Shown piece after piece: positions 6,132 through 39,539 of a stretch of DNA of 64,000 nt. A program made the position numbers and the translations under genes. The stretch's first letter is position 1. Each line of letters starts with the position of its first letter. Below the pieces are notes generated by a model. That model was not told the DNA's origin. It searched no databases and saw only the letters and a program-made list of their open reading frames with translations. Source of the stretch: Isosphaera pallida ATCC 43644 (GTDB lineage: Bacteria; Planctomycetota; Planctomycetia; Isosphaerales; Isosphaeraceae). The DNA lies in contig NC_014962.1 in NCBI RefSeq assembly GCF_000186345.1, positions 2,294,001 to 2,358,000 of the forward strand, read 5' to 3'.

Positions 6132-6584
6132 TATGTCCACCAGGTCACAAAGACTCGAACGAACGCGAAACCTCAGCCATCCCATCGAGTTGGGTCAACC
6201 CGATCGGTCGGTTCCGGCTCAAGCCAAGGGGAGAGGTCATTTCTAGTCTCCGACCCGTCCGCTTTGCTGTCAAGGGACTGCCCTGAAAATGCCCTCTCCT
6301 CCAGCCCATCGCCATCATTCATCGAAGTTTCATAATCTCAACGCTGGCGATCGGCATTTCGGACGGCTAGGATGAGATTGACTCGACGGCGACGTGGACC
6401 ACAGCGCGGGACGCATCCAACCGTCGCCGTGTTGGAAGGCGTGGGGTTCCCGGTGGTTATGACCGGAAGGCCGCTGTCGCCGGCTGGAATGGTCTTCTTT
6501 GAGCGGGGCGCGGGAATCCGTCGCCCGCGCTGGCACGGATGGGATCAGGTGATCGAGTTAAGTTGGCATTCACGGAGCTTTTCA
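6132..6584. other. Intergenic region between divergent genes
   Basis: About 450 bases between the epimerase (minus) and the phosphoesterase fusion (plus). Promoters for both should be here. I see no RNA gene or convincing small gene. The plus-strand frame that crosses it is only an upstream extension of the next gene. Confidence 0.5.
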
Positions 6585-39033: not shown

Positions 39034-39076
39034 AGGACGGATAGGTGAAATCATTGACGAGATGGACGAGGTTGAG

Positions 39077-39474
39077 TGACCGGGGTGGGGCTCGAACCCA
39101 CGACCAACGGATTAACGTACCTCATCGGCTTTCACCGACCGAAAGGAAACACGTCCTTTCGTTGAAAGTCTGGACTCTCTCTTCGCCATCACAGGCGTGT
39201 CGCGTAGAGTCTCTGAGGCTGACGCCGTTGAAGCCAACGGGGTCTTGCCTGCTGATTACCCAATCCCTCGCGCTTTTCAGCCGTCACGCTTGCCGTCTCC
39301 AGCGACGTTGTGGCGGCGGGGGCTCTCAGGGCGTTCCAGCATATAGCGACATGCACTCGTCGCGGTTCGGTTTCTTCCCGCGGGAGGCTCCTTGGAACCT
39401 TGAACTTCGAGGGCGGTCGAAGGTTAAGGTGAGGTGTTTGAAGTCCGTTGCTCTACCGACTGAGCTACCCGGTC
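39077..39474 (-). tRNA. tRNA-Lys (UUU) interrupted by an intron in the anticodon
   Basis: 5' exon 39474-39441 and 3' exon 39115-39077 on the minus strand. Joined they form a normal cloverleaf: acceptor GACCGGG/CCCGGTC, D-arm GCTCAGTCGGTAGAGC, anticodon stem ACGGA/TCCGT with loop CTTTTAA (anticodon TTT), 5-nt variable loop, T-arm GTGGG TTCGAGC CCCAC, discriminator A. The intervening 325 nt split the anticodon after its first base. The alternative reading of the unspliced 5' exon as a TCA anticodon fails because the 3' side of the loop would then not end the intron at G. Confidence 0.93.
39116..39440 (-). ncRNA. Group I self-splicing intron in tRNA-Lys
   Basis: 325 nt with no open reading frame of its own. 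On the minus strand: the 5' exon ends in U (39441) and the intron ends in G (39116), the group I boundary rule. Core elements in order: GGTAATCAGCAGGCAAGACC (39260-39241, P4/P6-side Q-type segment), CCTCAGAGACTCTACGCG (about 39218-39201, R-type) and GAGAGTCCAGAC (about 39178-39167, S-type); GACTC (39211-39207) pairs with GAGTC (39177-39173) as P7. A P9 hairpin CGAAAGGA/TCCTTTCG follows. A candidate guide, GAAGTTC (39408-39402), can pair with the 5' exon end GGACTT. Subclass not determined. Confidence 0.88.
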
Positions 39475-39539
39475 GGTGATGAGAAGAGTGTATATCAGGG
39501 GGTCGCGAAAGTCCAGGGGTTGCCCTCCCGGAAATCAAA

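What the first reader, a model, noticed from the sequence alone, without database searches (positions are those of the whole stretch)
39077..39474. tRNA-Lys(UUU) gene split inside the anticodon by a 325-nt group I intron
Joining the flanks restores a perfect tRNA-Lys cloverleaf, and the intervening sequence has group I boundaries (U before the 5' splice site, terminal G) and a P7-type GACTC/GAGTC pair with R/S-like elements. The insertion point, between anticodon positions 34 and 35, is the same as the classic cyanobacterial tRNA-Leu(UAA) intron, but the host tRNA is Lys with a short variable loop. Bacterial tRNA introns are well described in tRNA-Leu, -Ile, -Arg and -fMet; I know of few or none in tRNA-Lys. 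If this is the only UUU tRNA-Lys, decoding of all AAA codons depends on self-splicing.
Basis: partly seen in the sequence, partly recalled or inferred. Interest (0 to 1): 0.85.

Follow-up and report, generated by a model that had tools for sequence, protein, structure and literature searches.

The report
Self-splicing intron inside lysine tRNA gene
In the bacterium Isosphaera pallida and most of its family, the only tRNA gene that can read the lysine codon AAA is cut in the middle of its anticodon by an RNA that must splice itself out, and large phages carry related introns in the same spot, one of them with the gene for an enzyme of the kind that helps introns spread.

Summary
Window 39077-39474 (minus strand) is a tRNA-Lys(UUU) gene split between anticodon positions 34 and 35 by a 325-nt intron (39116-39440). 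Joining the flanks gives a perfect tRNA-Lys(ttt). The window belongs to Isosphaera pallida (genome sizes identical to the published ones); no intact tRNA-Lys(UUU) exists there, only tRNA-Lys(CUU). Rfam Intron_gpI hits the intron at E=3e-8 but below its cut-off (38 vs 50 bits); the orthologue in another genus passes (54 bits). An alignment of 32 orthologues supports P1-P9: 27 pairs with compensatory changes, 98.8% of cells paired, slid controls 31-45%.

The intron is at this site in 36 of 45 Isosphaeraceae genomes (19 of 21 genera); four genomes of one genus have the exact empty site. It is one lineage, distinct from the tRNA-Ile(CAU) intron of the same genomes. Relatives lie at the same site in another planctomycete family and in at least four viral contigs. 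A further one in a 180-kb viral contig carries a PD-(D/E)XK endonuclease gene. A second lineage occupies the same position in tRNA-Lys and tRNA-Leu(UAA) of large phages.

It is a new variant of a known kind: a group I tRNA intron in a tRNA for which I found no credible earlier report. Splicing is untested.

The parts
39441..39474 (-). 5' exon of tRNA-Lys(UUU), tRNA positions 1-34 (through U34 of the anticodon)
   Evidence: Sequence; joined exons give a perfect cloverleaf tRNA-Lys(ttt); identical or nearly so in Isosphaeraceae
39116..39440 (-). 325-nt group I intron, no homing endonuclease ORF
   Evidence: Rfam RF00028 E 3.4e-8; covariation over 32 orthologues; all three sense frames read
39077..39115 (-). 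3' exon of tRNA-Lys(UUU), from U35 to the discriminator (CCA not encoded)
39388..39390 (-). internal guide sequence GAG, pairs with 5' exon C32 U33 U34 (U34.G wobble at the splice site): P1
   Evidence: invariant in all 32 orthologues
39356..39386 (-). P2 stem-loop
   Evidence: 5 of 9 pairs with compensatory changes
39346..39351 (-). P3 5' strand (partner 39198-39203)
   Evidence: 3 of 6 pairs with compensatory changes
39250..39341 (-). P4 (39336-39341 with 39250-39255) and P5 with its extended, multi-helix P5 domain
   Evidence: P4 invariant; all four extra P5 helices show compensatory changes
39217..39249 (-). P6
   Evidence: 5 of 11 pairs with compensatory changes
39207..39213 (-). P7 5' strand (GAGACTC), partner 39172-39177 (GAGTCC); guanosine-binding helix
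   Evidence: A-U to C-G compensatory change in 6 sequences, 100% paired
39184..39203 (-). P3 3' strand (39198-39203) and P8 stem-loop (39184-39197)
39172..39177 (-). P7 3' strand
39124..39139 (-). P9-region hairpin with GAAA tetraloop just before the 3' splice site
   Evidence: 99% of cells paired, one compensatory pair

Best explanation
[quoted passage not shown] After transcription the RNA folds into the P1-P9 ribozyme, the 5' exon end CUU pairs with the internal guide GAG, external guanosine bound in P7 attacks after U34, and the freed U34 attacks after the terminal G, joining the anticodon halves. This is the cell's only tRNA for AAA, so AAA decoding depends on splicing. The intron entered tRNA-Lys(UUU) once, before the radiation of Isosphaeraceae, has been inherited mostly vertically, and was lost or never gained in one genus. 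Its lineage also lives in tRNA-Lys of large phages, where one copy carries a PD-(D/E)XK endonuclease gene, so an endonuclease-bearing mobile ancestor is the likely source. Shown: structure, conservation, uniqueness of the tRNA, empty sites, clade with viral copies. Inferred: splicing in the cell, single entry, direction of transfer, homing.
For: Perfect joined tRNA. Rfam hits. Covariation of P2, P3, the P5 domain, P6, P7, P8 with 0/500 shuffles as high and slid controls at 31-45% paired. U34.G, the guide and the terminal G are kept in the orthologues. The only other Lys tRNA is CUU. AAA is 22 of 76 lysine codons in six window ORFs. Present in 36 of 45 family genomes; exact intronless gene in four g18 genomes. 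One clade with viral and other planctomycete tRNA-Lys introns, 98/97. Endonuclease-bearing copy in L365: PF11645 E 2.3e-18.
Against: No splicing data. The Rfam score of this copy is below the curated cut-off. P1 has only three pairs next to the splice site. The tree rests on 291 aligned columns with long inner branches, so the link to the viral copies is a grouping, not a proven direction of transfer.
Confidence: 0.9

Rival explanations
1. The locus is a decayed copy and AAA is read by another tRNA.
For: Rfam score of this copy is below the cut-off.
Against: No other tRNA-Lys(UUU) in a 99.97% complete, two-contig genome; exons perfectly paired; splice signals and core conserved over 36 genomes with compensatory changes; AAA codons in use.
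Confidence: 0.02
2. The intron is a group I ribozyme in structure but needs a host protein for splicing in the cell.
For: Short P1 next to the splice site; some group I introns, fungal mitochondrial ones above all, need proteins (PMC3984707).
Against: Well-formed core with covarying P3-P8, an extended P5 domain and a GAAA-capped P9 hairpin; the best-studied bacterial tRNA introns splice alone in vitro (established knowledge).
Confidence: 0.2
3. The tRNA-Lys intron is a copy of the tRNA-Ile(CAU) group I intron present in the same genomes.
For: Both introns occur in I. pallida and in many genomes of the family.
Against: Different insertion position (34/35 against 36/37); separate clades with 100/100 and 98/97 support on long branches.
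Confidence: 0.03
4. The intron lineage was passed from bacteria to phages and is not of phage origin.
For: The family-wide bacterial copies look old; phages often pick up host tRNA genes.
Against: The only endonuclease-bearing copy seen is in a viral contig; viral copies of this lineage have their own tRNA bodies, unlike the planctomycete one.
Confidence: 0.3

Closest known systems
[quoted passage not shown]
   Same: Same insertion point between anticodon positions 34 and 35; same 5' exon end CUU; group I ribozyme (position from established knowledge)
   Different: Host tRNA is Lys with a short variable loop; extended P5 domain. No cyanobacterial intron was available here for direct comparison
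tRNA-Ile(CAU) group I introns (Azoarcus, Burkholderia, Acidovorax; here also Isosphaeraceae)
   Same: Group I intron in the anticodon loop of a sole essential tRNA; tRNA finders miss it (PMC8450103)
   Different: Inserted at 36/37; separate clade in the tree
tRNA-Arg(UCU) and tRNA-Leu(UAA) introns of Beggiatoa/Thiomargarita
   Same: Missing tRNAs explained by putative group I introns (PMC4853749)
   Different: Other tRNAs
Reported group I intron in tRNA-Lys of Gloeocapsa (PMC5733544)
   Same: tRNA-Lys host is claimed
   Different: The reported introns are 22-49 nt, too short to hold a group I core, so I do not count it as a precedent
Synechocystis tRNA-fMet intron with the PD-(D/E)XK endonuclease I-SspI (enzyme class from memory; Bonocora and Shub cited in PMC3984707)
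   Same: tRNA anticodon-region intron carrying a PD-(D/E)XK endonuclease, like the viral relative L365
   Different: The I. pallida intron has no endonuclease; the target is tRNA-Lys
Plant chloroplast trnK-UUU intron (from memory)
   Same: Same host tRNA
   Different: It is a group II intron with matK, unrelated

Membership tests
Group I catalytic introns | P1 with U.G wobble at the 5' splice site and an internal guide | tested here: met
   C32 U33 U34 / GAG invariant in 32 sequences
Group I catalytic introns | Terminal guanosine at the 3' end of the intron | tested here: met
   G before the 3' exon in all orthologues
Group I catalytic introns | Core P3, P4-P6, P7, P8 with the P3/P7 pseudoknot | tested here: met
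   Covariation, 98.8% of cells paired, 27 covarying pairs
Group I catalytic introns | Score above the Rfam RF00028 gathering threshold | tested here: inconclusive
   This copy 38 of 50 bits, E 3.4e-8; orthologue L062 54.1 bits; g9 orthologues no hit
Group I catalytic introns | GTP-dependent self-splicing | not testable with these tools
   Needs in vitro transcription
tRNA anticodon-loop introns of the compact (IC3, Azoarcus/Anabaena) type | Compact P5 without an extended domain | tested here: not met
   Four extra covarying helices beyond P5; grouped apart from the compact phage introns. Formal subgroup assignment was not made; the definition of the type is from memory
tRNA-Leu(UAA) intron family | Insertion between positions 34 and 35 | tested here: met
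tRNA-Leu(UAA) intron family | Shared sequence lineage with cyanobacterial tRNA-Leu introns | not tested
   No cyanobacterial sequence fetched; phage tRNA-Leu(UAA) introns fall in another clade

The most novel reading that the evidence does not exclude
A mobile intron family centred on tRNA-Lys(UUU), carried by large tRNA-rich phages and sometimes armed with a PD-(D/E)XK endonuclease, entered Isosphaeraceae tRNA-Lys and became fixed, so most of a bacterial family decodes AAA only through a phage-related ribozyme. A second intron lineage in phages converged on the same anticodon position. A possible benefit to phages is that the intron hides tRNA-Lys(UUU), the known target of the anticodon nuclease PrrC (PMC10264068), until splicing; nothing here tests that.
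Probability: 0.4. Interest if true: 0.78.

Novelty: new variant of a known kind. Interest (0 to 1): 0.62.

Why it matters
Bacterial tRNA group I introns are textbook cases for tRNA-Leu, -Ile, -Arg and -fMet. Here an essential single-copy tRNA for another amino acid depends on a ribozyme across nearly a whole bacterial family, and automatic annotation easily overlooks it because tRNA finders and the Rfam cut-off both miss it. The phage copies matter too: a 2014 review states that all phage introns known then lay in protein genes (PMC3984707), yet tRNA-Lys and tRNA-Leu introns are present in public phage sequences, including the cultured Agrobacterium phage Atu_ph07. Natural empty sites and an endonuclease-bearing relative make gain, loss and homing directly testable.

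Tried and rejected
The first genome-wide DNA pattern mostly returned intact tRNA-Thr(UGU) genes; it yielded one true tRNA-Lys intron (L133) and two candidate tRNA-Thr introns. L133 is labelled Alphaproteobacteria, but its SufB is 94% identical to Isosphaeraceae genomes, so it is most likely a misbinned planctomycete contig and not evidence of a proteobacterial host. A phylum search with a pattern ending CTTYAA gave 1 of 392 genomes; this is an underestimate, since it missed G268, whose intron starts TGA, and the sample held few Isosphaeraceae. Origin from the tRNA-Ile intron of the same genomes was rejected by the trees. Most of the 49 viral hits with the 3' exon showed no matching 5' half and are probably attachment-site fragments. 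BLAST of the whole window gene against phages found only exon matches, and against plasmids only one intron core.

Full report
What is there. On the minus strand of the window, 39474-39441 is the 5' half of a tRNA-Lys (34 nt), 39440-39116 is an intron of 325 nt, and 39115-39077 is the 3' half (39 nt). ARAGORN sees nothing in the unspliced stretch and a perfect tRNA-Lys(ttt) in the joined exons. The split between U34 and U35 is the one with U before the 5' splice site and G at the intron end that restores the tRNA.

The organism. G000 has 5,529,304 bases with a chromosome of 5,472,964 bases, exactly the figures published for Isosphaera pallida IS1B (PMC3072084). That paper's text does not contain the word intron.

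It is the only such tRNA. Rfam finds 47 ordinary tRNAs in the genome; two lie in the window (Val-GAC, Cys-GCA) and the other 45 were typed. The only other lysine tRNA is CUU, which by wobble rules does not read AAA. AAA makes up 22 of 76 lysine codons in six window ORFs. Another tRNA missing from the ordinary set, tRNA-Ile(CAU), is also split by a group I intron (L001).

It is a group I intron. Rfam RF00028 matches end to end with E 3.4e-8. The score of 38 bits is below the curated 50, but the orthologue of G022 scores 54.1, while orthologues of genus g9, obvious by alignment, give no Rfam hit at all, so the model under-detects this type. On 32 distinct orthologues (alignment A1) the group I structure, with P3 and P7 written as a pseudoknot, pairs in 98.8% of cells, with 27 pairs showing compensatory changes (shuffled mean 11.9, 0 of 500 as high); sliding partners by 1-3 columns drops pairing to 31-45%. 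P7 has a clean A-U to C-G exchange in six sequences. P1 (CUU with GAG, U34.G) and P4 never vary. The P5 arm is extended by four further covarying helices.

How widespread. In Isosphaeraceae, 36 of 45 genomes carry it: 20 by the first pattern, 12 more by 3'-exon search and inspection, and 4 of genus g9. That is 19 of 21 genera. Four genomes of genus g18 have the exact intronless gene: the pattern hits all four, three were read in full. Five genomes are undetermined, four of them under 90% complete. The introns are 281-338 nt long and cluster largely by genus in the tree, which fits vertical inheritance.

Relatives outside. A planctomycete of another family (G268, L467) has a 223-nt intron at the same site. 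Viral contigs L428, L439, L340 and L351 have 233-241-nt introns in tRNA-Lys(UUU) at the same site, with different tRNA bodies. All these form one clade with the Isosphaeraceae introns (98/97). L365, from a 180-kb viral contig beside a ThyX gene and several tRNAs, has a tRNA-Lys(UUU) intron of the same look with an inserted 164-aa PD-(D/E)XK nuclease gene (Pfam PF11645, E 2.3e-18); it was not in the tree. A different, compact lineage sits at 34/35 in tRNA-Lys of L204, L323/L326 and L324/L325 and in tRNA-Leu(UAA) of a 735-kb phage (LR756501, L391) and Agrobacterium phage Atu_ph07 (L393); in the tree the Lys and Leu copies are mixed. So two lineages occupy this tRNA-Lys position, probably because the exon end CUU is shared by tRNA-Leu(UAA) and tRNA-Lys(UUU) and matches the guide (inference).

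Known or new. The papers read name tRNA-Leu, -Ile, -Arg and -fMet hosts. The one paper claiming tRNA-Lys reports 22-49-nt introns, too short for a group I intron. The literature library holds only openly licensed papers, so an earlier report elsewhere cannot be excluded.

Limits. Splicing was not tested; the direction of transfer between phage and bacterium is open; tree branches are long and the aligned core is short. Viral contigs are metagenomic calls; one (L434) carries an Isosphaeraceae copy and may be host DNA. Few neighbouring proteins of the viral contigs matched phage families.

Noticed in passing
L001:1401-2000 (G000:C2:4790483-4790827) and L039-L061: tRNA-Ile(CAU) is split at 36/37 by another group I intron in I. 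pallida and many other Isosphaeraceae; no intact tRNA-Ile(CAU) was seen in I. pallida, so AUA decoding would also depend on splicing there.
   Followed up: partly
L469 (G003), L470/L472 (G051), L471/L473 (G049): Stretches of about 6, 35 and 74 kb lie downstream of the intron-bearing tRNA-Lys, with a phage-integrase gene next to the tRNA and a second copy of the 3' exon at the far end, like integrated elements; in two cases the repeat reaches several bases into the intron's 3' end.
   Followed up: partly
L393 (Agrobacterium phage Atu_ph07, MF403008), L391 (LR756501), L326:12747-12981: Group I introns in phage tRNA-Leu(UAA) genes, not annotated as such in the records seen; a 2014 review says phage introns were known only in protein genes.
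   Followed up: partly
L083:3290 and L132:49 (Clostridia MAGs): tRNA-Thr(UGU) genes interrupted after anticodon position 36 by roughly 230-nt group I-like introns (AGACT/AGTCC core, terminal G) with no Rfam hit at E<=0.01.
   Followed up: no
L192, reverse strand near 6522 (viral contig IMGVR_UViG_3300018493_000099): A tRNA-like sequence appears nested in the anticodon loop of another tRNA.
   Followed up: no
L326:1997-2228 and L323:160-391: A 239-kb viral contig with 23 tRNAs, a permuted tmRNA match (82.7 bits) and two tRNA group I introns in the stretch held.
   Followed up: no
L038 (G000:C2:2598950-2599400): Row of three weak tRNA-like genes in I. pallida (Cys-like, one with a two-base anticodon, Leu-CAA-like).
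   Followed up: no
L392:962-2012 (Nitrosophilus labii plasmid NZ_AP022827): A group I intron core similar to the I. pallida intron (74% over about 100 nt) beside an integrase-like gene, with an ORF of unknown function between two Rfam matches.
   Followed up: no
window 39045-39479 (+): An open frame antisense to the tRNA gene (144 aa, containing GGARTHDQ), probably a spurious ORF.
   Followed up: no
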